DNA of 64,000 nt from Isoetes taiwanensis. Its lineage: Eukaryota; Streptophyta; Lycopodiopsida; Isoetales; Isoetaceae. Location of the stretch: the NCBI GenBank assembly GCA_021234155.1, contig JAJEKV010000114.1, forward strand, positions 1,005,654 through 1,069,653, written 5' to 3'. The translations under genes were made by a program, and so were the position numbers. The notes beneath the pieces were generated by a model, which had not been told where the DNA came from, did no database searches, and saw only the letters and a program-made list of their open reading frames with translations. Below are positions 16,891-64,000 of this stretch, piece by piece (the first letter of the stretch is position 1; each line of letters begins with the position of its first letter).

Positions 16891-18424
16891 CTTGAGTCGT
16901 TGTGGTCCCATTGCTACTGCATAAGCCAAGTGCGGTAGACGATCATCATCCATATTTACCACCTTCTGGAAATACACGATGTGTCTATCAAGGGTCGTTA
17001 CCGGCGGCGGAAACCCCGCTCTCCCCGCAACAAAATTTGATAGGGGACCGTGGATTTCACTCCGAGTGCCTGTGCTAAGAAGGTTTTCTGCACCTGTTCT
17101 AAGTCGCTCCAAGTAGCAAGGGACACCACTAGGCCCCAAACTTCAACCCCGTACAAAAGAACGGGCTCTACCAATACCCTGAACAGATGTGCCTGATGTC
17201 CCCAATCATAAATTCTGCTCTGTGGTTATTGTTTTGCATTACATAAAGTGCTTTCCAGCCTGCTTCTACACGCAATCTTATGGAAGTGTCCCAGCATAGT
17301 GTAGAAGGAAACTCCACTCCCTGATACTTGTAGGTGGGTGTCACCTCCACTTGTTGCCCTCGATAAGTGAATGAAGGGGGCCTTGGATGGCGCGAGGATG
17401 AGATTAGGACCACCTTAGTCTTGGCAGTTGACGCTCATGTCTGCGGGCTCTCGCGTAATATATCCGAGCATCTAGGTGAGACTGCATATCCTTTGGAGTG
17501 TGAGCTAAGAGGTCAACATCATCTGCATAGATGAGTTGCCTGATGACATAATGCAAAAGTTGGGTCCCGCCACCCCCATTGTCCATGAGCCAGTGTTCCA
17601 ACTGGTCAATGTACAGACCAAACAATGTTGGGGAAAGAGGACATCCCTGGAGGACCCCAATACTGCTAGTGAATGGTTGTTCCGTCATCCGCATCTGACC
17701 TGAACAACTCTCATACAATCTGTATACTGCATTTTGCATATCCACAAGAACCTCCAGTTGCCGCAGTCTTTCCCATAACTTTTCCCGAGGCACAGTGTCA
17801 AAAGCCTTCGCAAAGTCAACAAAGCAACAATACAGGTCCCGCCGACGGTTTCTGCTATCCTCAACCAAGTCCTCAATGTGAAGATATGATCAATGGTTGA
17901 ATGCCGGGGTCTGAACCCCGCTATGCGAGAGCTCGCGACACCTGTTTTCTTCGCCCACCGGTCAACTGTTGCTCAATAATGCCAGCTAGCAGTTTGGCAA
18001 ACACCGAACTGACCATGATTGTTCGGTAATTGATTGGACTATGTGGATCTCCTGCCTTGTAAATGGGGACAACTCTGCTTGTGGTCCACTGCTAGGGGAA
18101 TCCTTCCTGTAGTGCTCTGTTGAACATAGCGGTTAGGACTGGTACCATAGGCTCCCCTGCCCACTTGAGCAACTCTGCCTGCATACCATCCAGGTCCGTT
18201 GCTTTCTCATTGGCCAAACGCTGCAGACCCTGGGTAATATAATCCTCTGTGATTTCTAATGTCGGACCATTCTGTGGGGGTATGAGTGCTCGTGTCCCTT
18301 GAGGATCAGCTGCAAGTATTGTTCCCACTGAAGAAAGCACGATACTGTGTGGTGGCATTTGGGCGCATTGCAGGATCTGTGATCTGGCAGAGCCGGCATT
18401 TGTATTCCTTACACTCAGCATCAA
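16891..18424 (-). pseudogene. LINE reverse transcriptase, broken
   Basis: Copies LINE RNA at the target nick. Motifs in order: ATDLDGMQAELLKW, FVDFAKAFDTVPR, GVLQGCPLSPTLFGLYI and the catalytic LIYADDVDLLA near 17510-17540. The post-RT region YKYQGVEF and GWKALYVMQNN follows. Frames switch near 18090, 17870 and 17410-17170, so the copy is inactive. The C-terminal Cys/His finger present in the family (see 52.05 kb) is absent. Confidence 0.85.
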
Positions 18425-19496
18425 ACCCCTGATTATGCAAGAATGTTGCAGTCCCCGTGATACTTCTCGGGCATGCTATCCCAAAACATCTTTCTGCGAC
18501 AGTACCAAGTAGCTCAATCAGCTGACCCGTTTGTTTCTCTAGCGTGGGGGCCTGCAAAATTCCTGAAAGGTCATCTATGAGCATATCAGCATAATCCTTT
18601 GCCTGCTCATAATCCAATCGCAAGTGAGGTATACGAAGAGCTGCCGTAGAAGGGGTTCTAGCAGCCTGCCAAGCCAACTGCAGGTAGAGTGGAAGGTGAT
18701 CTGAGTCGGTCTCCTCATCTCTACTGTCTGTGCCTACCCAAAAGTGGTTGATCAAATGTACATCCTGCTCAGCGACTAATAGATAGTCCACCACACTAGA
18801 TCCTCCACCCTGATTCTCTTGTCTGCAGGTGCACTTACAGGAGGAAGGCCACTATGCCAGGCCATTACAAATTACCAAGTCAAAGACACCACATAGTAGA
18901 AGCAACTGCCTGCCAAAGCGCATGACCTGACTATCATCTGATGTTCGTTGCCAAACCGCCTCCGCGGGGCGCAGCTGTAACACATGCTGAGCCAAAGGAT
19001 CAAGTCTCATGGGCTGCTCTACTCCTGTTCGTGCATTGAAGTCTCTAAGGAGTATCACACTACCCAACTGTCTATGTTGCTGTATGTCATCATATAGATC
19101 GATATATGGAGCTAGCCTGTCCACATCTGAGTGGGCATGGTAAAAGTTGCTTTCTGCATGTGGAAAGTAGCAAGCAACCAAGAAGAGAGGGTTGCCACTA
19201 CAATTCTGGACCCGCACCCACAAGTACCAGTTGTGTCTGTCAATCTTGTGCAGGAAGACCGACTGTGCCAAAGACTCCCGGTAATAACAAGCAACCCCTC
19301 CATGTCCCCTCTTGCCTGTGCAGCTATTGAAGACTGAGAAATGTTGATAGCCTAGAAGATCGGGTAGCCTGTGTCCCGCGTGCTCCCATGTCTCCATGAG
19401 GAAGATGAGATCCATATCTGCAGCAACAGAGTTGAGACTATCCCCCTTCTGCCATGGGAAACCTCGACAATTCCAGGAGACCACCCGAAGGCACAT
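18306..19496 (-). pseudogene. LINE APE-type endonuclease, broken
   Basis: Nicks target DNA for target-primed reverse transcription. The start VVSWNCRGF, LMETWEH, GHGGVACYYRE, ILLRDFNARTG (LGDFNAR-like) and the catalytic SDHLPL are all visible. A frame change near 18800-18850 separates the last motif from the others. Confidence 0.85.
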
Positions 19497-35182: not shown

Positions 35183-35418
35183 TGGAACGGGGCCTGCAAT
35201 GCTACCTCCATACCCATTTGCCATGAAAAGGCATAGACTTATTGCCTCCATTCGCACAGGTGCGCACCCTCTTTGAATTAAGATGGGCAGACGGATTGGA
35301 GAGCCATGCCAGAATAGGCTTTGTCAATGTTGTTAAATGGGAGCTGTTGAGGATGAATGCCATGCCCTTCGAAGATGTCCAGTATATGATCAAATTTGGA
35401 CACGCCATGCTGAGTTGG
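35183..35418 (+). other. Short protein-like stretch beside an LTR
   Basis: 35245-35418 is open and protein-like (FAQVRTLFELRWADGLESHA, FEDVQYMIKFGHAM) and is cut by the LTR starting at 35419. The family is not recognised. Confidence 0.25.
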
Positions 35419-36655
35419 TGTGACATTCCAACATAACATACAGTTTGAATACATATATTATACTGCCACGTCAAGCGTACATGTCACCATGATAAGTACT
35501 TGAGAGCCGTAAAGAATTGCGCCTAGGGGGTAACCTCGTATGTTGCGCATGTACATTAAACATATGCAATTAAAACCCTTTCCCAAGTGGCAAAGCCCCA
35601 TTGGTCCCTTCTAACCTAAACCTAAAAGTTCATGTAAAAGGAACAAAAGGGGAAACCCTAAACCCTTTCCATTTTCGCATTTTAGCTTCCTTGGGCCATT
35701 CCGGCCAAGCCAAGCTACTATTCCGCATTGCCAGGCACCGTCGAGCCGCATTTGCGCAACAGTTCTTTCATGAGCAGCTGTCTTCAACAAGAACGAAGGC
35801 ATGGATGCGATTCGGGGAGCTGGAGCAAGCCAGGGATCAGGTAATCCGCGATTACTCTTAGTCTGACAATGAGCTAGGATAGTATGTCAGATCAGTCTTA
35901 GCAGCCTTGTAGATCCTAAGATCACAAGCCATAACGAATGAACCTAACTATAGATGTTTAGGTAGATAGGTTAGATATTCTTTAGTATTTCAGCTCTTTT
36001 ATGATGATGGTGTTCCATTCTATGAACTCCTGTGTATGTGGGAAGGGGGGTAGAGGCCCTGAAACCTTTAGTAGCAGATGATTCTAGATAACCTCATTAA
36101 TTCCCAATTAATGCGGCCCATGTACAAGAGCTCGTCTGGTTGTGAGTGGCGAGATTAGATCGGTAGAATAAAGAGGACTTATCCCATCACTGATTGATCC
36201 CTCTCGTGTGTAAAGCCTACCAGGGATCTTAGCGGGCTAGGCTTAATGGTTTGCCACTGCATGTGGGCAAGGCATGAGCTCGACACCTCTTGGGTGATGC
36301 ATCACCTTCAATGAGGTTAAAGTCGAATACGGGCAGTGGCCCTCTACCGCCTGTGATGGGCATGCATGCCTCTGGAGGGGGTGACTCTCCTTCTGCCTCA
36401 TCGGGACTGGGGAGATGCAACCCAGCAATAGCCCCTTTGGCTACGTACCCGGCAGGCTACGATCCAGTTCCTAGACTCTTCAACCTACTCTGCAAAGTGT
36501 GCATGGGAGCGGCGGATGGAGCGGACTACCCAACAGCCATGTTTCTATGTCAGCCCAATCCATTCTTATGAACTCTGTCTGCAATGACTTCTGGAGACCC
36601 AAGCCGTCATTCCATACCCTGGAGTCTGAGTCTTGGGTAGGATCTCCCATGTGAT
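35419..36655 (+). mobile_element. Old LTR of the H3-carrying gypsy family, left part
   Basis: Begins TGTGACATTCC, matching the TGTGACGTTCC edge of the LTR at 53703. It then follows that LTR through TACTGCCACGTCAAGCGTAC, the GGTTTGCCACTGCATGTGGG block and TGGAGACCCAAGCCGTCA. Divergence is high, with indels. It is interrupted at 36655 by a younger LTR element and resumes at 40276. No internal region of the family follows, so it is a solo or truncated LTR. Confidence 0.8.
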
Positions 36656-37011
36656 TGTTAACCACCTAGTGGTTAACATTGTGCATGCACATGTTAGGTG
36701 CATGCACATGTTAGGTGTCAGTGGTGGCAGACTGACACTTGGCATGATTAGGTTAACATAAGTGTAGGGATTAGATTTAGTTAGATGTACGGCTCAGATT
36801 TGCGGTCTACACTATATTAGACCGGAGCCTCTTCAGATGTACTGAGGTTTATCTCATATTTGGAGAGCCTCATTTAGCCACGTTCCCCTTCATTCTTTGT
36901 ACATATTTCTTTGTCTTGTTCTTGTTTTGTGATCATGAGCATGGCAGCTTTGTAGCATCCGGCAGTCATGGACTGCTGCTGCAGGGTGTATGCCAAGAAC
37001 TCAAACTAACA
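36656..37011 (+). repeat. 5' LTR of the young element
   Basis: 356 bp. It opens with the palindrome TTAACCACCTAGTGGTTAA and includes two GCATGCACATGTTAGGT units. It is followed after one base by the primer-binding site. Confidence 0.92.
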
Positions 37012-39291
37012 CTGGCGCCGTTATGCCGGGTTCGCTCGTGATCACTTGCTTCAGCCTTGCTGTTTTGCTGTTGTTCTTGCTGCTCTCATCATCATCAGTT
37101 CTTGAATACTTCTTGTACACTACTCTCAACCCTTCAATCCCTTTATTTGGCCCAACCAGTTGTTGAAATGGTCCGGCTGGAGGCCCCTTTGTTAAATCCT
37201 TTCGTTTGCAATTACTCAGTTATGAAAGAGTTTTCAAACCTCTGTTTTTTCTGGTGCAGCAAGCGCAGTTCTACAGCAAGCGCAGTTCTGGAGTGGTGAC
37301 AGCACTCCTCTTTTTGCAAAAAAAACAAAAAAGCTTATCAGAAAAACCTCTTGATTCGTTTTATTATCTTCTATTATGGCAAAATTGTGCCCTCTGTTTG
37401 TTTCTGCACAGCAAAAAGCTTTTCTATTTTTCACGTTTTTTTGCGTATCAGCAAGATGGGAAGAGGCCCAAACGGCTCTTCTTGTCTTTTCGCATCATTT
37501 TTGGGCGAGTTGAGCTCTGTTTTCTCAGAGTTCTTTCCAGACTTCATCTATAGGACCGATATTTGTTCTTTATTGGCATATTTTCCAGTGGCAAAACTCG
37601 TTTTGACAGCATCCTGTTATTCATGGTGGATAAAGCTCTATTTTTACCACACAAGCTGTGATGGGAAGGCCTTTCTTCAAGTATTCGGGCTCAAATTTGT
37701 CTCACTTCTTCTTCAATTTTTTAAGAGGGCCAGCTCTATGGCTAGCCCCCATCTCTCATTCATGAGCAAATGGGCAACAGTCCTCTGGTGCTTGTATCTA
37801 TCCTGCATCACCCACTGTGTTAGTATATTGCATATCAATCTTCAGCATATTTGGAACAGTTAATCTCCAGCAAAGCACTCATATTCGTGCCTTAATACAG
37901 TCGAGATCTGCATGCAATCAAGGACAAATCATGGCTACCGCTTCAATGCATTCTGTTCTAGCAAATCTGGCAAGTTCCTATCTATGGCAGCTCAAGTTTC
38001 GGCACCACCTCAGGGCTTCTATCAGACCACCCGAAATCTATGGTGGCCTAGCTCTATTGCAGCTCTGCTCTGTTTTTCAAAAAAAAAAAAATGCCAGACA
38101 TCTTACAAGCAATAGAAGCAGATTCAGGGGCAGCGTTACATATTTTACCTATCCCAGCTGTGCATCACAAGATTCCAAGCTATTCCAGCTTTATCCCAAA
38201 TCGTGCTCTGTATCCAAGCTAACACAGAAACATCTTTATGGGCTACATACTGTTATTTAATTTCCAGAGGGCCAGCCCTTTTTGGCCAGGCCCCATCCTC
38301 TGCTAAGCCTAAACAGCCATGCCAATTCCCGTATCATCTGCTATCCGGAAGCATCTGTCAACACAAGAAAGGTTATCAACGAAAGAGCACATTTTAGACA
38401 GATTCTGGCCCAAGTCTTCATATTCAGTGTTCAAAGCAACCTTGACGCCGATTTGCCAGCATTGAAGCCTCTCTTCCTCAGTTTAGAATGCCGAAATCAC
38501 GCTGCCATAACCTCTTCTGGCTCCAAACTTTCTTCTTCACCGTTTCTTTATCAGGCCAATCCGGCTGCCAGCTTGCCAATTCCATCCAGATCCGGATCAT
38601 AGGCCGAGATTCTGACCGCTTCTTGCAATAGAGGAATGCAGCACTGCCATAGCCGGCCGTTTGTACAGGTTCATACCCTATTTTGATCCTCACGCTCTCA
38701 CGCTCTGTTTTGAGACACATGGGCCACGGTGAGACAATTGCAATTTTTATGGCCACGCGACGCCCACGCCCACGCCCACGGTCCACGCCACGGGCACGAT
38801 ACTGGTTGATAACCTCCCACGGCCACGGCCACGCTCTTCATGCTCATTTGGTTATGGCCCACGCCCACGCTACTATCAGAGGATCCACGCTCATGCTCAC
38901 GCACGGCCACGCAAAAAAAAAAAAAAAAAAAAAGAAAAAAAGAGGAGGGCTGATCACGGGGTCTGCATTCTAGTGTTTATTCTTTATGGCCCCCATAGCC
39001 CATAGTCCTATTGCTTTGAAGTGGGATTTTTTGTTATTGTTTGACTTACCCATATGAAGGGTAAGTTATTATATCTTTTAGCCCACTTACTTATGGCCCA
39101 TCAACATCGACATTATTTGGGACCTCAATTTCGACATCACGCGCTCACGCTCATCTTTCGGCAACACAACAAACCATTACCAATACCATCCTTTCTGTCC
39201 CTAAAATTTTTGGCACCATGTTGTAATTGTCAGACTTGTCTTATAAAAGTCTGTACATATTTTTGTGCTAAAAATTTTTAGGGGGAGGCAG
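37012..39291 (+). other. Interior of the young LTR element, no recognisable genes
   Basis: No gag, protease, RT or integrase motif in any frame. 38750-38915 is a C-rich minisatellite of CCACGCCCACGC-type units, with a second one at 39430-39560. Open frames such as 37351-37863 lack protein family signals. Confidence 0.6.
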
Positions 39292-39914: not shown

Positions 39915-40270
39915 TGTTAACCACCTAGTGGTTAACATTGTGCATGCACATGTTAGGTGCATGCACATGTTAGGTGTCAGTGGTGGCAGACTGACACTTG
40001 GCATGATTAGGTTAACATAAGTGTAGGGATTAGATTTAGTTAGATGTACGGCTCAGATTTGCGGTCTACACTATATTAGACCGGAGCCTCTTCAGATGTA
40101 CTGAGGTTTATCTCATATTTGGAGAGCCTCATTTAGCCACGTTCCCCTTCATTCTTTGTACATATTTCTTTGTCTTGTTCTTGTTTTGTGATCATGAGCA
40201 TGGCAGCTTTGTAGCATCCGGCAGTCATGGACTGCTGCTGCAGGGTGTATGCCAAGAACTCAAACTAACA
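39915..40270 (+). repeat. 3' LTR of the young element
   Basis: 356 bp, apparently identical to 36656-37011, followed by the GTGAT target duplication. Confidence 0.92.
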
Positions 40271-40275
40271 GTGAT

Positions 40276-40436
40276 GATGATATTGTTGATGCGTTTATAC
40301 ATGTATGCTATGGTATAGTCATCCTTCGAGGTGATTCTGTTCACATTTGATATCATGTGCTTATGTTTACTCACGCTTTCGTAGCTAGGACAGTCCCGAG
40401 GGAAGACGGGACAAATGACCCATCCATTCTTCCTCA
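40276..40436 (+). mobile_element. Old gypsy LTR, right part (truncated)
   Basis: Continues the LTR from 36655 and aligns with 54995-55130 of the H3-element LTR (CATCCTTCG, TGTTTACTCACGCTTTCGTA, GGGACAAATGACCC). It stops short of the expected TCACA edge. Confidence 0.7.
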
Positions 40437-51659: not shown

Positions 51660-52920
51660 GAAGGAAGTATATTTTAACGTCCAGGAGGCCAATTGGCCTA
51701 TGAGATGGTTACAGACATACAATATATCAGATAGTATCCAAACACAAAAGAAAACCACAAAAGCCCTATACAATGTGTCTCTACCACTGGGACGAGAAAA
51801 CCCCCCATGTGGGAGGAAAAACCCTTGTAGTAGGCGTTCAAATTCCCTATCTGGGCGCTCAAATTCCCTGTGCTATAAGGGACTCTCTGACAGTCGAGAC
51901 TTGCAGAATGTAGGATGCGAGACGTGCAACCATTGGCGAAGCCAGCAGTTGATGAATTGCTATCTCAGAGCATCTGAGATCGGCATGAGCGGCTCAGATG
52001 TGTGCATATGCCGGACACTCCTGTAGAGCATGGTGTTCATCTTCTACTATCTGCATGTGACAGCACTGGCATAATCTCTCATGCCAGGGGATTCCCTGCC
52101 CTCCATCCACACCCCAGCAGCCTGTCTCAATTCTGAGATGGTGGGACCCTGTTCTTATTGTAGCTATGGCTCTCCGTTTCTTGGTAGAGATGTGTGCCTT
52201 CAAATATTGGTGGGGGCCATGTTCAAACGACAGATTAATCTGCGTGTGGTAGTGCTCTATTTTGGGCTTTGCAAGAGTGGGCACATCCCACAGAGAGGCA
52301 GCAAAGTGCTCATTCAAATGCAGTCCTGTTCTGCGATATCCGGCATATCCATAATCTAACGATAGTCTATGGACCATCTTGCGAACCACCCCTTACAATG
52401 CTCCTGCCACACTCTCTTCAGTCGTTGCGGCCCTTGTGCCAATAACAGAGCCCGGGGAGGGAGACGTTGTGCATCCATTCTGTCAACCTTATGGAAATAC
52501 GCAAGGTGCCTGCGCATAGCAGAATGCTGCAAGGGCCAAAAGCCAGTCTCATACAGCAAAATTGGATAAGGCACCGTGTCCTTGACGCCTAGGCTGTATG
52601 TCAGGAAGGCCTTCTGTACCCTCTCTAGCTTATCCCAAGTGCTTTTGCTAATCGCTGGCCCCCAGACCTCTACCCCATACAACAATACCGGTTCAACGAG
52701 TGCTTGGAACAGGTGTGCTTTGCGTGCCCAATCGCAGAGATCTATTCTGTAACAGCTATTCTGCATTGCATACATGGCTTTCCATCCCGCGCTGACCCTT
52801 CTTTCTACACGGTCATCCCATAGCATGTTAGCCGAAAAATCGATTCCCAGATACTTAAAGGTCCTTACAACTTCCATCCTTTGTCCTCTGTAATAGAAGT
52901 CTGGGATATCATGCTGCGTA
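51660..52920 (-). mobile_element. LINE 3' fragment, minus strand
   Basis: The C-terminal RT region (FKYLGIDFSANMLW, GWKAMYAMQNSCYR, LAQGPQRLKRVWQEHC) runs into the Cys/His finger (CQCCHMQIVEDEHHALQECP). The frame shifts once near 52370. The 3' end carries a (TTCC)n-like tail near 51655-51665. It is related to the 16.8-kb LINE and 5'-truncated near 52920. Confidence 0.8.
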
Positions 52921-53702: not shown

Positions 53703-55249
53703 TGTGACGTTCCAGCACAGTATACGGTCCCAGAACATATATTGTACTGCCTCGTCACGCGTACACGCCACTCTGACCGACGTGTACGCCGACGGATAGC
53801 CAGGTAAGTAGCCCTAGGGGCAACTTGCTAGGTATGTTCATATGTTATTAATGTGCACATGTGCACATTAATGTGGGCACACCTTTCCATGTAGGCACAT
53901 TTTGCCACCTAGCCATTAAAGGCAAGTGGGGCCTTTCCAATTATCCCACATGGAAACCCTAGCCCTAACCCCCATGTCTATTTAGAGTAGGAAAACCCTA
54001 ACTTTCTAATTTCGTCCATAGGGTTTTAGAGCTCAGTTTTGGCTGCCCCAGGAGCCAAAACCGCCTCCCAGACGCTGCCCAAGCGAATCGCACCATTAGT
54101 TTCCCTGGATTCGATCAGCTCAGCAGGATGGTTGAACTCAGGTCAGGAGGAGCCACCCAAGGATCAGGTATTTGGTCAATTTAATAGCTTAAACCGTCTT
54201 CTAGTCATAGAATCAGTAGGTTTAGCCTATTAAATTGCCCATAGCAGCTATCTAGACCTCTAGATCCCAGACACTAACTAAAGAACCTAACTCTATGATA
54301 TAGATTAGATCTAGTTCTTTAGTTCTTCTGTGATGTATATGGACGATGTATCTCTGTGAACTCCTTGTATTGGGAAGGGGGGTAGAGGCCCTAAGGCTTA
54401 GTAGTTGATGCTCCTAGAGTAGCCTCTCTAGCACCCTGTAGATGCGGCCTGTGCACAAGAGCCCCACCTGGTTGTGGGTGAAGGGGCCAGACTGGCTTAT
54501 AAGGAGATTCGTGTCCTGACCCTTGAACGATCCCTCTGGTGTGTAAAGCCTACCAGGGATCACTGTGACTAGGTCTAATGGCTTGCCACTGCGTGTGGGC
54601 AAGGCATGGGCTCAACACTCGTGGGGTGGTGGTTATGACCTTCCAGTGAGTTCAAGTCGAATATGGGCAGTGGCCCTCTAGTCACCTTGAGTCAGCATGT
54701 AGATCTTTGGAAGGAGTGATCCCTACCTGCCCCATTGGAACTGGGGAGATGAAACCCAGGAGTAGCCCCCGTGGCTACGCATCCGGCAGGCTACAGTCAG
54801 GTCCCAACACTTTTCAACCTATTCTGCAAAGTGTGCACAGGAGGGGCGGATGGAGTGGACAACCCAATGCCATGTTCTTATGCCAGCCAAATCCATTGCC
54901 ATGAATTCTGTCTGCAATGAACTCTGGAGACCCAAGCCGTCAGTCATCCCCTTTGAGTCTGAGCCTTAGGTAGGATTCCCTATGTGATGTGCTGATCTTT
55001 GTCTATGCAGATATGTGGAGGACCATCCTTCGTGATGGTCATATGATGTTGTTGTATGTACTACTGACATGTATGTTTACGCTTCCGCAGCTAGGTAGGC
55101 CCTGAGGGAGACAGGGTAAATGACCCCTTCATTCTTCCCACTGGAACTCTTCAAGGTTGCAGGGCCCTATATTGGCGTGGAGCTGGTATGGGGAATGAAC
55201 TCCTGTTTGTATACGGTGAGTGCACCGTATATGAGTAGGGGACGTCACA
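53703..55249 (+). repeat. 5' LTR (1547 bp)
   Basis: Starts TGTGACGTTCC and ends GGGGACGTCACA, an inverted terminal match. The end is fixed by the primer site beginning at 55251. The same start occurs at 63227. A related old LTR is at 35419. Confidence 0.9.
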
Positions 55250-55250
55250 G

Positions 55251-55262
55251 TGGTATCAGAGC
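55251..55262 (+). promoter_or_regulatory. Primer-binding site, initiator Met-tRNA type
   Basis: TGGTATCAGAGC, one base after the LTR. This is the standard complement to the 3' end of plant initiator tRNA-Met used to prime minus-strand DNA synthesis. Confidence 0.9.
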
Positions 55263-55454
55263 AATGTTCTTGGAGACCAAGAGCAAAGCACTGGCCATGC
55301 TCCCAGTAGTACTAACTTGATAGGATCCTTAAGCCTCGAAAAGTGGGAAATTTTTTTTCTCATTTTTGTAGTTTATGCTAAGCTAGTAACAATTAAGAGA
55401 ATTGGAACTTAATAAGACTAAAAAGAATGAGCCAAAAATTTGCCAAGTGAGGTG

Positions 55455-55521
55455 GTCTCACAGCTCGCGCCTGGTCGAAGAACTAAACTTTAGTTTTTGA
55501 GCGAGGCGCAAGCTGTGAGAC
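55455..55521. repeat. Hairpin 1 (67 bp)
   Basis: Near-perfect inverted repeat. GTCTCACAGCT opens and AGCTGTGAGAC closes, with about 26 of 32 stem positions paired and a minimal loop inside ACTAAACTTTAGTT. It lies 200 bp after the primer site. Confidence 0.9.
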
Positions 55522-55645
55522 ATCGAGCCAAGATCACTTAAACATGATGAATTTGGGAAAAATAATGTGGTAAGGCTAGTTCTAAGATAGGAATTAATTA
55601 GAATAGCATGTTTTAATTACTTAAATTACTTAAAAATGTGTGAGA

Positions 55646-55723
55646 TCTCACAGCTCGCGCCTGGTCTAAAAACTAAACTTTAGTTTTCGAGCGAGGCGCG
55701 ACCTGCTTGGCGACCTGTGAGAC
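55646..55723. repeat. Hairpin 2 (78 bp, with internal insertion)
   Basis: Same repeat as hairpin 1. The right arm has an extra partial duplication (GCGACCTGCTTGGCGACCTG), which weakens the stem base. Confidence 0.85.
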
Positions 55724-55824
55724 CAATAAGTAGGAAAAGTCTGAAATAAGTATAAATTTTAATTAAGTAGGTGCTTTAGCATGTTAAATAGAGCAACTTG
55801 GATTTGACCTAAAATTTCCCAACC

Positions 55825-55833
55825 TATAAATAG
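55825..55833 (+). promoter_or_regulatory. TATA box upstream of the H3-like ORF
   Basis: TATAAATAG, 102 bp before the ATG at 55935, followed by a C-rich leader. This suggests the H3-like gene has its own core promoter inside the element rather than relying only on the LTR. Confidence 0.6.
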
Positions 55834-55934
55834 ATGTAGACCCCCCTTCATTTCCACGTCCCAGCCCTAGAAATCCGCTCTCCCGCACTTAGGCGATCTT
55901 TGGGCGCTGATATCCGATCGACGAACCGAAAAAC

Positions 55935-57206
55935 ATGGCCCGAACCAAACAGACCGCCAGGAAGCGTCGCCCAGGCGAAACCACCAGCGCCACAGACACT
56001 GACATCATTCGGCAGATGCTCCGTGAGAGGCTCGCGAAAGGGGGTCGTTCGCCTTCGAGCGATGAAGACACCTCAAGAGATCAAGATACATCTGATCTGA
56101 TTGATGTCTTCAATCAGCAGGTGGATCAGGATGAGGCCACATCACCAACCTCCATAGACGAGGAGACAAGGGAGGCGTACGAGGAAATAGAGAGGGAGAT
56201 TAGAGAGCAAGAAAGGGCAGAGGACCACTCTGATGCAGCAACAGAGATCCTCCAAGATGAAGAGGGGGCGGCACATCGGAAGAGGAGGAGGAAAGAGCAC
56301 CAAGAGCACAACGAGCCGAGACTTGAGCCGGCAGAGGAAGCAGATCTCGCGAAGTTCATCAGGAAGTATGAACGCCGGGAGAAAAAGAGGAAGAGGGAAG
56401 AGGAGGAACAGAAGGCGGCCGAAGAGAAGAGGAAGGCGAAGGGGAAATTCGTGGACGGCCCAAGGAAGCTGAAGGACGTCCCACCAAGAAGGAGGCCCAA
56501 CCCCAAGGTCGTCATCAAAGAGCGGCAAGCCGACCAACCTCCGAACCCCTCCGACGACTCCTCCGACGAGGACTTCAACCCTATCACTGAAGGTGGAAGT
56601 TTTTCTAAACCCCCAGGTGACGAGCAGGTAGTACCTGAGCAGCCAGCGTCTGAGCAGCCCCAGCAGGATCAAGTGTAGAAGCCCCCTGAGTACCCGGCTT
56701 GGGACAGGAAGAAACAGCCGCGGCCTGCCCGAGAAGCCTATGTCACAGACCGGGTCAAGATATACGAAAGGAAGATGAGGGAACACGAGGTGTATATGAA
56801 AAAGTGGGAGGCCTACAGTAAGTACTATGAAGAAAACAGGGTTGCATTCGTCGAGGGAGGGCGACCAACGAAGCAACAGACCTTAAAGCCGCCACCACCA
56901 AAGCCCAAGGCTCCCAAGCCGCCACCCAAGAGGAGAGCGCTGAGGGAGATTAGGCACTTCCAGCGCAGCTACGGTCTCCTAATCCCCCGTGCCCCCTTTG
57001 CTTGGCTAGTTCGGGAGGTGATGCAAGACTTCAGGACGGACTACAGGGTCACAGATGAGGCGCTGCTGGCAATGCAAGAAGCGGCTGAGGCAAAGACAGT
57101 GCAACACTTTGAAGACTCAACAGCTTGCACTGTTCACGCCAAATGGGTAACCCTCATGAGACAAGACATGCTTCTTGCGAGTCGCATTAAGGGAGAACGC
57201 CCTTAG
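55935..57206 (+). CDS. Histone H3-like protein with giant charged linker, encoded in a retrotransposon
   Basis: 424 codons with one in-frame TAG at codon 248 (56676-56678). Residues 2-10 are ARTKQTARK, exactly the first nine residues of mature H3, including Lys4 and Lys9. Residues about 11-332 are a Glu/Lys/Arg- and Pro-rich linker with KKRKREEEE and SDDSSDED patches. Residues 335-423 align without gaps to H3 positions 47-135, about 50 of 89 identical by my count against remembered H3. ALREIR, LVRE, QDF, QEAAEA, FED, HAK and GER are kept. Loop 1 has canonical length, so it is not CENH3-like. The dimer-interface Cys, His and Asp (H3 C110, H113, D123) remain. DNA-contacting Arg63, Arg69 and Arg116 are Pro, Trp and Trp. 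The role is unknown: a chromatin mimic, a reader recruiter or a cDNA-packaging protein. If the TAG is real, only the tail-bearing 247-residue half is made. Confidence 0.88.
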
Positions 57207-57350
57207 AACCTTTTGTAAATAATTAAAAATTTTGTAACATAGAGCAATTTTGTGTACTTTAATTGCATGAACTTGATTAATTAGGACAAGCTAGCAGGTT
57301 TTAGCTTTTATTTCAGCAAAATAGGACATTTGCAGACCGAAAGGCGTGAT

Positions 57351-57417
57351 GTCTCACAGCTCGCGCCTGGTCAAGAAACTAAACTTTAGTTTTTGAACGA
57401 GGCGCAAGCTGTGAGAC
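57351..57417. repeat. Hairpin 3 (67 bp)
   Basis: GTCTCACAGC ... GCTGTGAGAC. Same hairpin family as 1, 2 and 4, located 145 bp after the stop of the H3-like ORF. Confidence 0.92.
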
Positions 57418-57550
57418 CTTGCCCAAACTTGCCCAAAACAGTTCCAAATTGACCAAATAAGGGGTCAATTCTACCTGATTTGATGAGCCCATCATCCTTA
57501 CACCCTTAGTTCACCCAAATTGGACACGTTTTGATCAAAATGGGACTGAT

Positions 57551-57617
57551 GTCTCACAGCTCGCGCCTGGTCAAAGAACTAAACTTTAGTTTTTGAGCGA
57601 GGCGCAAGCTGTGAGAC
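57551..57617. repeat. Hairpin 4 (67 bp)
   Basis: Almost identical to hairpins 1 and 3. Spaced exactly 200 bp from hairpin 3; hairpins 1 and 2 are 191 bp apart. Confidence 0.92.
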
Positions 57618-57808
57618 CTCCTACCATTTCTTCACCAGAACTTGCCCAAGTGATCTTCAACCTGTTGTATAGCATCTTTAGGTAATCCAGCCACGCTCAA
57701 ACACTTGAACTAGTTTTCAAATTCCCATTTTGACCTCAGTATAGACTAGAATTGCCCAACCCCAGAAATTTTCAAAGTCATCCAAAAATTAGGGTTTTCC
57801 CATTTTTC

Positions 57809-57818
57809 TATAAATAAG
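57809..57818 (+). promoter_or_regulatory. TATA box upstream of ORF B
   Basis: TATAAATAAG about 95-120 bp before candidate starts of the next ORF (57905 or 57930). It repeats the arrangement seen before the H3-like ORF. Confidence 0.5.
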
Positions 57819-57904
57819 TCCCTCATTTCTCAAATAGCACCCTACAAGTCTGCTCCTGCCTTCTTAGCCGATTTTCCAACTCCCTGAGGCGCTCTTGCAA
57901 CCGT

Positions 57905-59401
57905 TTGATACCCTCTTCCGCATTTAACCAATGGCAACCTCTCGATTTTTCGATGGTACAGCGCCAACAATATGTTGCCGAGGCCGACATCGACCAAATT
58001 TTCCATGTCTTCGTGAAGGAGGTAGATGTCCAAGCAACTTTGCACGCAACCCCAGCTTACAAAGAGAGTCCCCGTCAATTCCAAGCTAGGGTAGAACCAG
58101 CATTAGTGCAACTCCCACCTTGCATAGGTTACTTTGTTCCTAGGCAATCCCTGCAAGCAGCCTTAGGCGATGTTCCAAACATTGCCAAGTACCTCACAAA
58201 CAAGGCCCACAAGACGCCTCGAGCCAATGGTTCTAACCGGCAATAGGACCAAATATTTCTTTTTAACACCGCCTTTGGCAATCTTTCTTACCCACCGCGT
58301 CGAAACACCGTGGGAGAAACCTCCATTCCTCCCATGGACGTGGACCCATTAGCCATAGCAGCAACAATAACTCCCTTACGCAATACCTAACAGAGCAGGA
58401 AGGAAAAGAAGAGGAGGACTTCGTAAGAAGAGGAATCGAAGAGGAGGAGGACTACGCCGAGCTCGACCCAACAGAAGAGCTGCAAGCGTAACAAGAGTGG
58501 CAAGACTTTGAAAGAAGCCGACAAACTCTTAGAGTCGCTGCCACTTTGGGCTAGGCATTACAAGCCTAGCCCCCATCATTATCAAGGGCTTAAGAGTTTT
58601 TGCTTCTAAGCGACATCCAAAACCTCCCGAGTGCGGGAAAGGAGTACCGACTGAAGAATTGCTGCACCAACTCCGGAACGAACGGACCTCGACGACTTCA
58701 TCGTCCCGAGGAACATCCGACGCCCCACTCCAAGTAAGGGAAGCCGACATTGCATACGGGGAGAGTCGACCTCCGACATCCAAGCCTACAGCAGCATCAG
58801 GCAGATTATGGAGGCAGACAAGGCCGCGGACACACTACCGACGGAGGAAGAGTTCCTTGCTTTACAGGAACAGATGGGGATCCGACACGCGACCTCGAAC
58901 ATCCTAACAGCAAGCTCTTCGGCAATGCCTCCTCGGGAGAGAAGAGGCGAGTTCGACCGAGAGAGCTTCAACAAATGAGACTACGTGGAGCCCATCACAA
59001 AGGGAGGTAGATGACTTTGGCGCGCATTACGAGCTGGATACCGAAAGTGGCCGAGGATCACCACGCAATCCATTGTGTCGCTATGGGTATTATCCCCGCC
59101 GATGGATGGAAGAATAGCGGTAATTCACCGCAAATTCACCCCCAGAGGTGAGGAAGGAGTATTGATGGTAATTGCGCTCTCAGGATTTGGCCGGCATGCG
59201 CGGTTACCCCTTAACACCGAGTATGCCATCCTGGTGAAGAGAGCGGTAGCACTCGATGTTTTCGACTTCGCCATACCTTACAGGCGGCATGGAAGACTGG
59301 CGGTAACCGCAGCTTATACCTCCGACCGCAGAGTGGAAGACTTGGCGAGGGCTTTGCAGGGTGGATCTTCAGTCAACGTCCTTAGGAACTTGGGTCATTA
59401 A
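57905..59401 (+). pseudogene. ORF B, decayed second accessory ORF of the element
   Basis: Protein-like blocks in order, across changing frames: 57905-58245 (VAEADIDQIFHVFVKEVDVQ, then VPRQSLQAALGDVPNIAKYL); a TAG; 58246-58388 (DVDPLAIAATITPL); 58390-58490 (acidic, EEEDFVRRGIEEEEDYAELD); about 58660-58978 (SIRQIMEADKAADTLPTEEE, FLALQEQMGIRHATSNILTA); and 59075-59401 (IAVIHRKFTPRGEEGVLMVI ... RRVEDLARALQGG). The original protein would be near 490 residues. I recognise no family. It lacks a histone fold. It shares the two-hairpin plus TATA layout with the H3-like gene. Confidence 0.5.
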
Positions 59402-59688
59402 GGGGAAAACCCAAGTGAAAAAGTTCCTAGAGGATAATCCATCCTACCGGCGGCATCAAGAATACTTAGCAATCTTGATCCCAGAACTTTTAAATTTTGT
59501 ATTAGCATATTATAAAACATGAATATAATTTCTTTTGCAGCTTAAATGTTTTGTGATGTATTGTGCGCCACAACTATATCAACAAACATAAATAATGCAA
59601 GAGAACAAGTAAAACTAACCATATAGCCATGAACTACTTGTGTATGCAGCTAGAGGCCTAGGCTCAGGGGAACGACAACACCGAACAT

Positions 59689-60982
59689 ATGGAAGAACAG
59701 AGTCCGGCCGAGGCCACGTCCCAAAGGAACCCGCTTCAAGAATTTGGACCCATGACCCTTAAGAGGAATTATCCCGTGATGAGGATGGACCTTGAGCGTA
59801 TAAAGGCTTTGCTAGCCGCATGCTGTGAGCTGGTTCGGTGGGCAACGCCAACCGCCACAAGCATCACCTCGAAACAGAAGGGACAAGAAGAGGAGCAAGA
59901 GAGGAAGGTCCCCAGCACGGACTCCTCCGACTCAGCTCGTGATTCGACTCCACCCGGAGGAAGAAGAAAAGCAGAACCAGGACCGAACAGATGGAAGGCA
60001 GAGGAACACTCCAGATGGAAGACAAAGGGACACAAGAACCTCTGATTACCAGAAGAAAGTAGACTCTGCATTGGGAAATGTTTGGAAGGCCAGGAAGCTC
60101 GAGCAATTCTCAGGCGAGAATAGGTCAGGCATGGAGGCAGAGGCTTGGCTTGACGAGATGAGTGAATATGGCAACGCCTATGGTATGAAGGATAAGGATA
60201 AAGGTAGGGTGGCAACAACGAACCTGAAAGGAGCAGCACGCATTTGGTGGAAGGGTTATGCCAAGGCTCATGGCTTAAGCAGGGATGCTTGCAGGTTCAA
60301 GAAGTTTGCTAAAGCCTTCAAGCGCCATTACGTTCCAAGGGAGCACAAGTCCACCATGATGCAGCAGTTCTATAGGCTCCAACAGGGAAACAAATCAGTC
60401 CAGAGATATACAGAGGAATTCATGAGGCTAAGACTCTATGTGCCAAAGTTGGGTGAGAAGCATGCAGTAGAAAGCTACATTGAGGGCCTGAATGATGAGA
60501 TCCGTAAGCTTGTAAGGGCAATAAACCCTAAGACAGTATCAGAAGCAGAGTCCAAGGCAATAAGCTTGCAAGGAACGGGACCACAGAATAGCGGGCAGAG
60601 GCAGCAGTATTACCAGGATAAAGGCAAGGCAACAGGGAGTTATAGCCCTAGAGCAGCCAGTCCAGGCCCAGCTAAAGCCCCATATGGGGGCAACCAGGGG
60701 AAGTAGCAGGAGAAGAAACAGGTGTCCTTTAAGGATAAGCAGGAAGGGTCAAACTACTCCAAAGCGGTGCGATCCTTTTTGCAGGCTATGCCCAAGGAGA
60801 AGAGACAGGAGTGCATAGATAAGCAGCTTTGCTTCAGGTGCTTCCAGACAGGCCATAGGACAGCGAACTGCCCCTATGTCATGAGTGCAGCACTAGCGGA
60901 GTTGGGAGATTGGGACACTCTGTCTGACGACGACGGCGAGGAAGCCCGCGATAGGGTGAGTGTCATATCTTTGCCGCAATAG
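59689..60982 (+). pseudogene. Gag (capsid plus CCHC nucleocapsid), broken
   Basis: The start MEEQSPAEATSQ (59689) opens an acidic Ser-rich N-terminus. A frame change near 59980-60040 leads into the main capsid frame. Capsid motifs of the retrotransposon gag family are GAARIWWKGYAK, FKRHYVPREHKS and QRYTEEFMRLRLYVPKL. An in-frame TAG (60704-60706) precedes the nucleocapsid, whose zinc knuckle CFRCFQTGHRTANC fits CX2CX4HX4C. The frame ends at 60982 and overlaps the pol frame (open from 60952), which lies at -1. No canonical slippery heptamer was seen in the overlap. Confidence 0.82.
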
Positions 60983-63226
60983 ATACAGAGCAAGCAGAGA
61001 GCCAGTATAAGGTAATTTCCACAGTAGGCAAGGCCAAGGCCAAGTCATTTATAGTCCTGATAGACTCGGGAAGTAGCCATAACTTTGCATCCCCCATAAT
61101 GGTTCAAATGTTGAAGTTGAAACCATTGAAGTCGAACCCGAGGCCCGTTGTGCTAGCAAGCGAAGCAGTAAGGCAGACGGCAGGCAAGAGAATCAACTTC
61201 GACATCGAATTACCAGGGATTAACATCCAAATGGGGGCAGAAGTAATAGGCATTGGCAAGTACGACTTGATCATAGGATTGGAATATCTTGGACCGGCAG
61301 GGGCCATCATTGATTGTGGAAAGCGGAAAGTGACCTTCCCAACGCCCGACGGCAAGATCATTGAGATCACAGGTAAAGAAGTTGTTCCCATCATGCAGTG
61401 TATGTCTTCTAAGCGGCTATTCAAGTGTATCAAGAGTGAGCAAGTAGCATACATCTTTAAGCTTGAGGCTGAGGAGCCGGAGTCCGAAGAAAGCAAAGAA
61501 GACAAGGTGCTCAACAAGCTGCCCAAGCAGATAGCTAGTTTGATCACGGAGTTCCACGAGCTGTTCCCGGATGAGATCAAGCAGCTCCCTCCTTATAGGG
61601 GAGTCGAGTGCGAGATAGCACTCGAACCGGGAACAAAGCCGACAAGCAAGGCTCCATATAGAATGACGACGCAGGAGTTGACGGAGCTAAAGAAGCAGTT
61701 GCAGGAGCTACTCGACCTAGGTTTCATTAGACCTAGTGTCTCACCGTTTGGAGCGCCCATTCTTTTTGTCAAGAAGAAGGATGGATCTTTGAGGATGTGC
61801 ATAGACTATAGGCAGTTGAATAAGCACACCATCAAGAACAAGTATGCGCTCCCAAGATCAGATGACTTGATGGATCAGCTTCAAGGAGCAAGGGTCTTCT
61901 CCAAAATCGACTTAAGATCAGGTTATCATCAGATCCGGATAAAGGAAGAAGATATCCATAAAACCGCCTTCAGGACGCGGTATGGGCATTATGAGTTCAC
62001 GGTAATGCCTTTTGGCTTATCAAATGCCCCCGCGACGTTCATGAGGCTCATGAACGACATCTTCAGGGAGTTCTTAGACACCTTTGTGATTGTATTCTTT
62101 GACGATATTTTGGTGTATAGCAGATGCCTTGAAGAGCACGTACAACACTTAAGGAGAGTGCTTGAGAAGCTGAAGAGGCACCAGTTGTATGCCAAGTTGT
62201 CGAAGTGCCACTTCGCAACGGAGAAGGTGGAATATCTTGGTCATGTGATCTCAGCAGAAGGCATTGCGATGGACCCCGCAAAGATTGAAGCAGTAATTCA
62301 GTGGCCGGCGCTGAAGAATGTGCATGAGGTCAGGAGCTTTCTCGGGCTAGCAGGGTACTATAGGAAGTTCGTAAAGAACTTTGCTAAGATAGCGGCCCCG
62401 TTAACAGACCTGACGAGGGCAGAGAAGGTGAAAGATTGGGCAGAGCATTGGCACAAGAAAGCCCAAAAGGGGTTTGAATTGTCGTAAGAAGCTCTGACGA
62501 CAGCCCCTGTCTTGACCCTGCCGGACCCGGAGAAAGATAAGCTTGTAGCAACAGATGCGAGTAAGATAGCTACAGGTGCGGTGCTTATGCAAGAAGAGCG
62601 TGTAGTAGCGTATGACTCCAGGAAGATGAACGACGCCGAAACGCGCTACCCCACGCATGATCAAGAATTGCTTGCGGTTGTCAGGGCGTTAAGAATCTGG
62701 AGGCACTATCTCTTGGGAAGGAAGTTCCAATTGGATACCGACCATCAGAGCCTCCAGTATGTATTCATGCAACCACACCTTAATCTAAGGCAGCGGAGGT
62801 GGATGGAGTTCCTCGAGGAATATGACTTTGATATAGTCTACAAGCTGGGGAAGCTCAATGTGGTAGCAGATGCGCTTTCAAGGCACCCCCTGACAACTAG
62901 AGTGCATTGCAATGCAATTTTGACGCTCTCCAACGACTTTGGTAAGAAGATTGAAGAGATCTTGCCAACGGATGTGGATTTCAGGGAAGTATGGGAAAGC
63001 CTCTCTAGGGAGGCTAGAACAGATAAAGAACGGGAAGCCTTCAAGCATTATAAGAAGGAGGGCAACCTGTTATACCACAAGAACAAGTTGTGCGTGCCCC
63101 AATCATCAGGTGTAAGGAAATTGATCCTCCACGACACGCACAACGGCCCAATAGCTGGCCATGCGATATTCATGAAAACATATTTCAAAGTACGCAGCAG
63201 CTATTATTGGCCAGGAATGAAGAAGC
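60952..63226 (+). pseudogene. Pol: protease, RT, RNase H and start of integrase, interrupted
   Basis: The aspartic protease DSGSSHNF has its catalytic Asp at 61063. RT runs about 61600-62400, with [40 protein letters not shown] and catalytic FFDDILVYS (62095-62121). An in-frame TAA (62485-62487) falls just before RNase H (VATDASKIATGAVL, TDHQSLQY, VVADALSRHP). The integrase zinc domain begins (HDTHNGPIAGH, YYWPGMKKL) but the sequence turns into an LTR at 63227 before the second Cys pair. The catalytic core and any chromodomain are absent. Order and motifs indicate Ty3/gypsy; a chromovirus affiliation is plausible but not testable here. Confidence 0.9.
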
Positions 63227-64000
63227 TGTGACGTTCCAGCACAGTATACGGTCCCAGGACGTATATAGTACTGCCCCGTCATGCGTACACGCCACTCCGA
63301 CCGACGTGTACGCCAACGGATAGCCAGGTAAGTAGCCCTAGGGGCAACTTGCTAGGAGTGTTCATATATTATTAATGTGCACATGTGCACATTAATGTGG
63401 GCACACCTTTCCATGTTGGCACATTTTGCCACCTAGCCATTAAAGGCAAGTGGGGCCTTTCCAATTATCCCACATGCCAAAATGGGTAATTGGAAACCCT
63501 AGCCTAAACCCCATGTCTATTTAGGGTAGGAAAACCCTAGCTTGCTAGTTTTTCGTCCTGAGGGTTTTAGAGCTCGCCTTTGGCTGCCCCAGAGCCAAAA
63601 CCGCCCCCGTGACGCCCAAGCGAATTGCGCTTATCGGTTCCCCGAACTCGATCAGCCCAGCCAGATGGTTGAACTTCGTGTCGAGGAGCCACTCAAGGAT
63701 CAGAGTTTGGTCAATTTAATAGCTTAAACCGCCTTCTAGCCATAGAATCAAAGAGGTTTAGACTATTAAATTGCCCATAGCAGCTATCTAGATCTTAGAT
63801 CTCGGACACTAACTAAAGAACCTAATTCTATGATTAGATCTAGTTCTTTAGTTCTTCCGTGATGTATTTGGATGATGTATCTCTCGAACTCCTTGTATTG
63901 GGAAGGGGGTAGAGGCCCTAAAGCTTGTAGTTGATGCTCCTAGAGTAGCCTCTCTAGCACACCGTAGATTCGCCTGTACAAGAGCCACACCTGTTGTGGG
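63227..64000 (+). repeat. LTR (3' LTR, or 5' LTR of a nested copy), cut by window end
   Basis: Starts TGTGACGTTCCAGCACAG, as at 53703, and matches that LTR for all 774 bp visible, with scattered substitutions and a short extra segment near 63475-63490. It joins directly to integrase coding sequence. A usual polypurine tract is not evident just upstream, which leaves open a nested insertion instead of a true 3' LTR. Confidence 0.88.

What the first reader, a model, noticed from the sequence alone, without database searches (positions are those of the whole stretch)
55935..57206. A gypsy-type retrotransposon carries a histone H3 gene
Between the primer site and gag lies an ORF ending in an ungapped 89-residue H3 histone fold (residues 335-423; about 50 identities to canonical H3 by my count). 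Flanking LTR, primer site, gag and pol place it inside the element. I know of no retrotransposon family described as encoding a histone H3. Such a protein could place the element's cDNA or integration complex in chromatin, or interfere with silencing.
Basis: partly seen in the sequence, partly recalled or inferred. Interest (0 to 1): 0.96.

Follow-up and report, generated by a model that had tools for sequence, protein, structure and literature searches.

The report
Retrotransposon lineage carrying a histone gene
A family of jumping genes in what looks like a quillwort genome carries its own version of histone H3, the protein that packages DNA, and natural selection has kept it working, which suggests that the element manipulates its host's chromatin.

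Summary
Window 55935-57206 is, apart from one in-frame stop, a 423-codon frame ending in a histone H3 fold (PF00125 E 6e-25; 50/89 identities to canonical H3). It lies between LTR/primer site and gag-pol of a chromovirus-like element. It is not a chance insertion: the genome (size fits Isoetes taiwanensis) has 1051 exact MARTKQTARK-coding sites, mostly not host H3 among those listed (reversed control 0). Of 20 copies chosen for open H3 frames, 18 show the LTR, 20 H3, 20 ORF2, 18 gag, 16 RT, in that order. A second lineage with near-canonical H3 has the same order; one complete copy has both LTRs, a GTGAA duplication and a chromodomain. The fold is under purifying selection (median dN/dS 0.06-0.08 in lineage A, 0.002 in B; RT 0.02). 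H3 is not universal: about 15 of 100 listed LTR-primer junctions have it close by, and of six others fetched one did. Fungal hAT transposons with H3 are published; my literature listings showed no histone-bearing LTR retrotransposon. Function (deposition with H4, anti-silencing or targeting) is inferred. The window copy is decayed.

The parts
53703..55249 (+). 5' LTR, TGTGACG...CGTCACA
   Evidence: matches the LTR at 63227 and LTRs of 18 of 20 fetched copies; ends read from sequence
55251..55262 (+). primer binding site TGGTATCAGAGC (tRNA-Met type by recall)
   Evidence: sequence; exact in 17 of 20 copies; LTR-primer junction motif 3856 times in the genome, reversed control 0
55455..55521 (.). 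palindrome 1 (about 67 bp)
   Evidence: folding z -7.1
55645..55721 (.). palindrome 2
   Evidence: z -5.8
55825..55832 (+). TATAAATA, putative promoter of the H3 ORF
   Evidence: its surroundings align with those of the one at 57809 (local score 46, 0 of 500 shuffles)
55935..56675 (+). H3 ORF, part 1: MARTKQTARK tail (55935-55964) and charged linker
   Evidence: tail exact in 20 of 27 distinct A copies, this one included
56676..56678 (+). in-frame TAG, lesion of this copy
   Evidence: frames of several relatives are open here
56679..57206 (+). H3 ORF, part 2: linker helix and H3 fold (fold 56937-57203), stop 57204-57206
57351..57417 (.). palindrome 3
   Evidence: z -8.0
57551..57617 (.). palindrome 4
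   Evidence: z -8.2
57809..57816 (+). TATAAATA, putative promoter of ORF2
57905..59401 (+). ORF2, decayed here by stops and frameshifts; pieces scanned have no Pfam match
   Evidence: relatives in 20 of 20 copies; 484-codon stop-to-stop frame in a B copy
59825..60982 (+). gag (Retrotrans_gag, Ty3_capsid; zinc knuckle below cut-off), one in-frame TAG
60979..63226 (+). pol: protease, RT, RNase H, integrase H2C2; in-frame stop at 62485; cut at 63226
63227..64000 (+). LTR of the same kind, runs off the window: own 3' LTR after a deletion, or LTR of a nested copy
   Evidence: lesion arithmetic

Best explanation
This is one decayed copy of a chromovirus (Ty3/gypsy with an integrase chromodomain) lineage that has carried a histone H3 variant gene between primer site and gag long enough for it to diversify over hundreds of copies or more, and that keeps it by purifying selection. 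SHOWN: H3 fold and tail; position inside the element; many copies; constraint on fold and tail. INFERRED: the gene is transcribed from its own TATA promoter with paired palindromes; the protein enters the nucleus, pairs with host H4 through the conserved fold and is deposited as an H3 replacement whose tail keeps only the K4/K9 stretch (lineage A) while the rest is replaced by a long charged linker. I think the likeliest benefit (about 0.5) is nucleosomes over element or target DNA that the host cannot mark or read normally, that is anti-silencing and/or a foothold for integration; a link to the element's own chromodomain is possible but not shown.
For: Histone fold by profile, PDB sequence and model. 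Own-genome search: the 150 hits scored (of 10880 first-look candidates, window included) all have E at or below 1.6e-75 and 75-100% identity. Of 20 copies chosen for open H3 frames: H3 20, LTR 18, exact primer site 17, ORF2 20, gag 18, RT 16. Lineage B: same order in the one copy followed, with two LTRs, GTGAA on both sides, purine tract and chromodomain PF00385 E 1.2e-8. Median dN/dS of the fold: A1 105 pairs 0.079, A1 v A2 120 pairs 0.062; B1 6 distinct pairs dS 0.54, dN 0.002. Tail: 1051 exact sites, host H3 included, 359 more with one mismatch, so about 0.016 change per constrained site (22 by my count), against a four-fold-site distance of about 1.5 among 94 listed non-host spellings. Changes from canonical H3 avoid conserved columns: 2 of 26 v 37 of 63, 0 of 2000 neutral simulations as low; with shared words masked 2 of 13 v 37 of 64, p 0.005. 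12 of 35 non-host tail sites in C1-C154 have the exact LTR-primer junction 584-989 bp upstream on the same strand; two control intervals 0.
Against: Copies for dN/dS were picked by similarity to H3 and mostly for open frames, which lowers dN. The H3 fold is less constrained than RT (0.064 v 0.021; close pairs 0.143 v 0.068), and the small A3 group gives 0.20 (3 pairs). Freedom from stops in the fold alone is unremarkable (P 0.18 in the neutral simulation). Most LTR-primer junctions listed have no H3 close by (5 of 6 fetched from these showed none), so the gene is dispensable or limited to sub-lineages. The three other tail sites fetched have broken frames. Lineage B lacks MARTKQTARK (starts MANTK, MANNK or METPK), so a tail-based role cannot be general. 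No expression, H4-binding or localisation data.
Confidence: 0.85

Rival explanations
1. A host H3 gene or retrocopy landed in this one element copy by chance.
For: The window copy is decayed; gene capture by plant LTR retrotransposons is reported as common (PMC7264820, passages).
Against: Same slot in the chosen copies and in lineage B; 1051 tail sites; fold 50/89 like canonical H3, while the ten host H3 genes read are 86-87/89.
Confidence: 0.01
2. Passenger: the H3 gene was captured once or twice and hitchhikes without helping the element (transduplication as in fungal hAT elements).
For: Known in fungi (PMC3538342, PMC6710886; passages). Most listed junctions have no H3 close by. The three tail sites of other spellings that were fetched have broken frames (L047-L049). 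The fold is less constrained than RT.
Against: dN/dS far below 1 on fold and tail; promoter module shared with ORF2.
Confidence: 0.08
3. Host exaptation: individual genomic copies of the H3 ORF serve the plant (for example as an H3 variant), and host selection keeps them.
For: In the complete B copy the LTRs differ by K 0.096, yet its H3 and ORF2 frames are open and its fold is amino-acid identical to L040 and L041, where my arithmetic from LTR age expects about 10 changes; gag-pol pieces of that copy lie in several frames.
Against: I chose that copy for its open H3 frame and from a similarity-ranked list; hundreds of dispersed loci are an odd host gene family; a centromeric role is not favoured, as loop 1 has canonical length unlike the one plant CENH3 compared.
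Confidence: 0.06

Closest known systems
Chromoviruses (Ty3/gypsy; PMC6317226, passages)
   Same: Gag-pol order, tRNA-Met type primer site, integrase chromodomain and 5-bp duplication (B copy)
   Different: Two extra ORFs, each behind a TATA box, between primer site and gag, the first an H3 variant; the passages of that survey that I saw mention no histone ORF
Fungal hAT transposons with a histone H3-like gene (Pyrenophora PMC3538342; Mycosphaerellaceae PMC6710886; passages)
   Same: Mobile element amplifying an H3 gene to tens or hundreds of copies
   Different: DNA transposons with terminal inverted repeats; Pyrenophora copies nearly identical, Mycosphaerellaceae copies inactivated by RIP; the passages I saw describe no long N-terminal extension
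Orchid Ty3/gypsy elements with a 2-ODD m6A demethylase domain (PMC9289625, passages)
   Same: Plant gypsy family that captured and kept a regulatory domain as an extra ORF
   Different: Tat-related by that paper, other domain, other target (RNA methylation)
CENH3 / CENP-A
   Same: Long non-canonical N-terminus; 48 of 89 identities to one plant CENH3; 8 of 34 diagnostic positions CENH3-like
   Different: Loop 1 has canonical length, 10 of 34 positions H3-like, 16 neither; does not group with P0158 in the trees
Giant-virus histones (best: Clandestinovirus H3)
   Same: Histones on selfish DNA
   Different: 23% identity in the fold search; DNA viruses

Membership tests
Chromovirus (Ty3/gypsy LTR retrotransposon) | two LTRs and target site duplication | tested here: met
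   one complete B copy: LTRs in L044 and L046, GTGAA on both sides; in the window only the 5' LTR and a related LTR are visible, no duplication could be checked
Chromovirus (Ty3/gypsy LTR retrotransposon) | gag, protease, RT, RNase H, integrase in Ty3 order | tested here: met
   (Ty3 RT 4ol8 E 2.8e-75)
Chromovirus (Ty3/gypsy LTR retrotransposon) | tRNA-Met primer site | tested here: met
   TGGTATCAGAGC; that the motif fits tRNA-Met is recalled; PMC6317226 passage: tRNA-Met in most chromoviruses, not used by non-chromoviruses
Chromovirus (Ty3/gypsy LTR retrotransposon) | chromodomain in the integrase | tested here: met
   PF00385 in L046:221-718 of the B copy; that part is not present in the window copy nor in the 10-kb A stretches, so not tested for lineage A
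Histone H3 | H3-type histone fold | tested here: met
Histone H3 | ARTKQTARK N-terminus | tested here: met
   lineage A; not met in the five B copies read
Histone H3 | pairing with H4 and assembly into nucleosomes | not testable with these tools
   needs complex prediction or biochemistry
CENH3 | lengthened loop 1 and place in a CENH3 clade | tested here: not met
   (few CENH3 rows; long branches)
hAT transposon with H3 (transduplication) | hAT transposase and terminal inverted repeats around the H3 gene | tested here: not met
   in 55253-59700 only the four palindromes and weak inverted pairs; no hAT domain among the frames scanned

The most novel reading that the evidence does not exclude
A chromovirus lineage builds its own chromatin: its H3 variant, deposited with host H4, exposes a minimal K4/K9 tail that host writers can methylate while the other tail marks are removed, and the element's integrase chromodomain reads or is freed by that self-made mark, so the element controls its own silencing and landing sites.
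Probability: 0.2. Interest if true: 0.98.

Novelty: new variant of a known kind. Interest (0 to 1): 0.93.

Why it matters
Retroelements are silenced through histone marks, above all on H3 lysine 9. An element family that encodes and preserves its own H3, with the K9-bearing tail in one lineage and a near-canonical fold in the other, would show the arms race reaching the nucleosome itself. It makes testable whether a selfish element can rewrite chromatin by supplying a core histone, and it gives natural H3 variants with extreme tails and selection-filtered folds.

Tried and rejected
Rejected: a genetic code with TAG read as Gln (the frame ends at TAG exactly where H3 ends, and related copies end there in TAG, TAA or TGA). 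CENH3 origin. Host pseudogene insertion. Led nowhere: homologues of the linker, none among 3294 candidates; viral contigs and genome-contig scans, no relative; plasmids, no match; Pfam and PDB on ORF2 pieces, nothing convincing. One or two captures: the tree puts B next to host H3 (that place weakly supported) and A apart, but one A+B clade is not rejected (p-AU 0.205). Overlap between the 150-row lists was not computed. The H3 state at RT-ascertained copies could not be tested (search unanswered).

Dropped rows: six of 100 listed tail sites were left out as host H3, five because they are's host-type rows and one (C445:238575) by its spelling alone; pairs with dS of 0.02 or less or with saturated dS were left out (6 of 210 for the fold, 80 of 210 for the linker, 1 of 55 for RT), and only copies with a full ungapped block were used (RT 11, ORF2 15, H3 21 of 21).

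Full report
CHECK. Window 55935-57206 holds 247 codons, a TAG, and 175 more codons in the same frame. Residues 1-10 are MARTKQTARK, the start of canonical H3. The last 89 residues match H3 without gaps, 50 of 89 identical, with PF00125 at E 6.4e-25 and H3 chains as best PDB hits. The model has helices 83-96, 104-115, 126-153 and 161-171 of the 175-residue part; block pLDDT is 57-59 around the first and 84-93 over the other three; it matches nucleosomal H3. Between tail and fold lies a charged linker for which no homologue was found.

ELEMENT. The 5' LTR is 53703-55249, the primer site 55251-55262, gag from 59825 or earlier, then protease, RT, RNase H and integrase H2C2 to 63226, where a related LTR starts. 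That LTR and the 5' LTR differ by K 0.107 with 14 gap events in 755 aligned sites. At that rate the H3 ORF should hold about 12 indels; it has no frame-breaking one, though it lacks 10 codons that relatives have. So the second LTR may belong to a nested copy; this is not decided. Four palindromes of about 67 bp stand in two pairs, one before the H3 ORF and one before ORF2, each pair followed by TATAAATA; the promoter stretches are alike (score 46, 0 of 500 shuffles). This suggests two internal genes with sister promoters.

HOST. The assembly has 1,658,258,908 bases in 1110 contigs. PMC8566536 (passages) gives 1658.30 Mb in 204 scaffolds plus 909 contigs for Isoetes taiwanensis, so I infer that species; 'histone' does not occur in that paper's text.

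COPIES. The protein search of the own genome scored 150 of 10,880 candidates, the window included; all 150 have E at or below 1.6e-75 and 75-100% identity. I fetched 20, chosen for long open H3 frames, 10 kb each: H3 20, LTR 18, exact primer site 17, palindromes 20, ORF2 20, gag 18, RT 16, RNase H/integrase 15 of 20. A search with a normal-length H3 (P0129) scored 150 of 8,907: 15 host-type H3 (86-87%) and 135 others at 66-85%, many in frames of 400-567 aa. Five of the 135 were read (L039-L043): stop-to-stop frames of 471-491 aa ending in a fold 75-76/89 like canonical, starting MANTK, MANNK or METPK. One was followed on both sides: primer site, H3 ORF, 484-codon ORF2 frame, gag 55%, protease part 47%, RT 80% and RNase H 77% like the window element, chromodomain, two LTRs (K 0.096, 27 gap events), purine tract and GTGAA duplication.

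TAIL. A degenerate pattern for MARTKQTARK hits 516 + 535 = 1051 places, reversed control 0; allowing one mismatch 1410. Of the 100 places listed I took six as host H3. The other 94 show 50 spellings; four-fold sites differ by about 1.5 changes per site, while 359/1051 gives about 0.016 per constrained site. In C1-C154, 12 of 35 non-host tail sites have the exact LTR-primer junction 584-989 bp upstream on the same strand, none in two control intervals. Three tail sites of other spellings, fetched without knowledge of what follows, all had H3-fold remains about 0.87-1.26 kb downstream, with broken frames.

SELECTION. Nei-Gojobori on the fold, median ratios: A1 105 pairs 0.079, A2 28 pairs 0.055, A3 3 pairs 0.203, A1 v A2 120 pairs 0.062, A1 v A3 45 pairs 0.075, A2 v A3 24 pairs 0.067, window v A1 15 pairs 0.104; B1 6 distinct pairs dS 0.54 and dN 0.002; host H3 45 pairs 0.006, 18 of them saturated. 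Blocks compared in one script: RT 11 copies 54 pairs 0.021, H3 fold 21 copies 204 pairs 0.064, H3 linker 130 pairs 0.069, ORF2 15 copies 105 pairs 0.098; among close pairs (dS below 0.35) pooled pN/pS is RT 0.068, fold 0.143, linker 0.255, ORF2 0.195. So H3 is constrained, but two to three times less than RT. RT was not used to choose copies, but only ungapped RT blocks were counted. Ratios mix selection before insertion with decay after it. Against the H3 family, the window copy's changes avoid conserved columns (2 of 26 v 37 of 63; masked control, which is significant at cut-offs 0.7-0.95 but not at 0.5); absence of stops in the fold alone is not telling (P 0.18). Its two exceptions are kept in 26 of 26 and 25 of 26 distinct relatives.

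AGAINST. The LTR-primer motif occurs 3856 times. Of 100 listed junctions 15 have an exact tail or a scored H3 hit close by. Six further ones, taken on the plus strand from those without, were read at +1000 to +2200: one had an H3 fold, one was A-type sequence with the H3 region apparently deleted, one held LTR sequence, three were not recognised. H3 is therefore not general among elements with these ends; whether the others are the same family is open.

ORIGIN. In a tree of the fold, A is one group (100/99) and B one group (100/97); B lies next to host H3 with weak support (83/54), A apart on a long branch near a metagenomic H3, P0125 (94/74). A single A+B clade is not rejected (p-AU 0.205). 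One old capture with a fast A branch, or two captures into the same slot, both remain.

PRIOR WORK. Nine text searches bear on this (listings, some showing only the best of more hits; one search found nothing, one search failed, one search was for the genome). None listed an LTR retrotransposon with a histone. Passages of PMC3538342 and PMC6710886 describe H3-bearing hAT transposons in fungi. 'Histone' does not occur in the review of extra ORFs in plant LTR elements (PMC7264820) or in the rotifer paper PMC5408684. Subscription papers and preprints are not in that library.

MECHANISM. Shown: fold, tail, slot, copies, constraint. Inferred: own transcription, nuclear import, pairing with H4, deposition. 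The A lineage keeps the K4 and K9 contexts but replaces the rest of the tail; B keeps a near-canonical fold and, in four of five copies read, an internal ARKS stretch. I favour a replacement histone that spoils or reshapes host marking of element chromatin, at about 0.5; a decoy for K9 writers or readers, and packaging of cDNA, are alternatives that I cannot separate here.

Noticed in passing
window 55455-55521, 55645-55721, 57351-57417, 57551-57617: Four similar strong palindromes, paired before each of two TATA boxes; at least two palindrome sites in each of the 20 fetched A copies. Function unknown.
   Followed up: partly
L045:84-1535: ORF2 of the B copy is an open 484-codon frame without convincing Pfam match although gag-pol of the same copy is broken; weakly related to ORF2 of the window element.
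   Followed up: partly
L044, L039, L045, L046 (C1078:1546176-1561175): LTRs differ by K 0.096, yet the H3 fold is amino-acid identical to two other copies: better preserved than LTR age predicts, with the caveat that the copy was chosen for its open H3 frame.
   Followed up: partly
window about 55217 and 59650: Splice-donor-like GTGAGT in the LTR and acceptor-like TATGCAG before gag would remove H3 and ORF2 from a gag mRNA; by eye only.
   Followed up: no
L039-L041, L043: B-lineage linker holds ARKSGSQYKEKLK, an ARKS stretch like the H3 K9/K27 context (by eye).
   Followed up: no
window 187-1937 (-), 4471-7161 (-), 17404-19496 (-), 52356-52877 (-): By eye from translations: pectinesterase gene; Helitron-like helicase remains; LINE-like endonuclease/RT remains.
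   Followed up: no
window 35418-36655 and 40362-40433: Pieces about 75-77% like the element's LTR, split by an insertion with 359-bp repeats 99.7% alike (36656-37014, 39915-40273).
   Followed up: no
G000:C217:120970, 126779, 132560: Three identical tail spellings spaced 5.8 kb apart on one strand: a possible tandem array.
   Followed up: no
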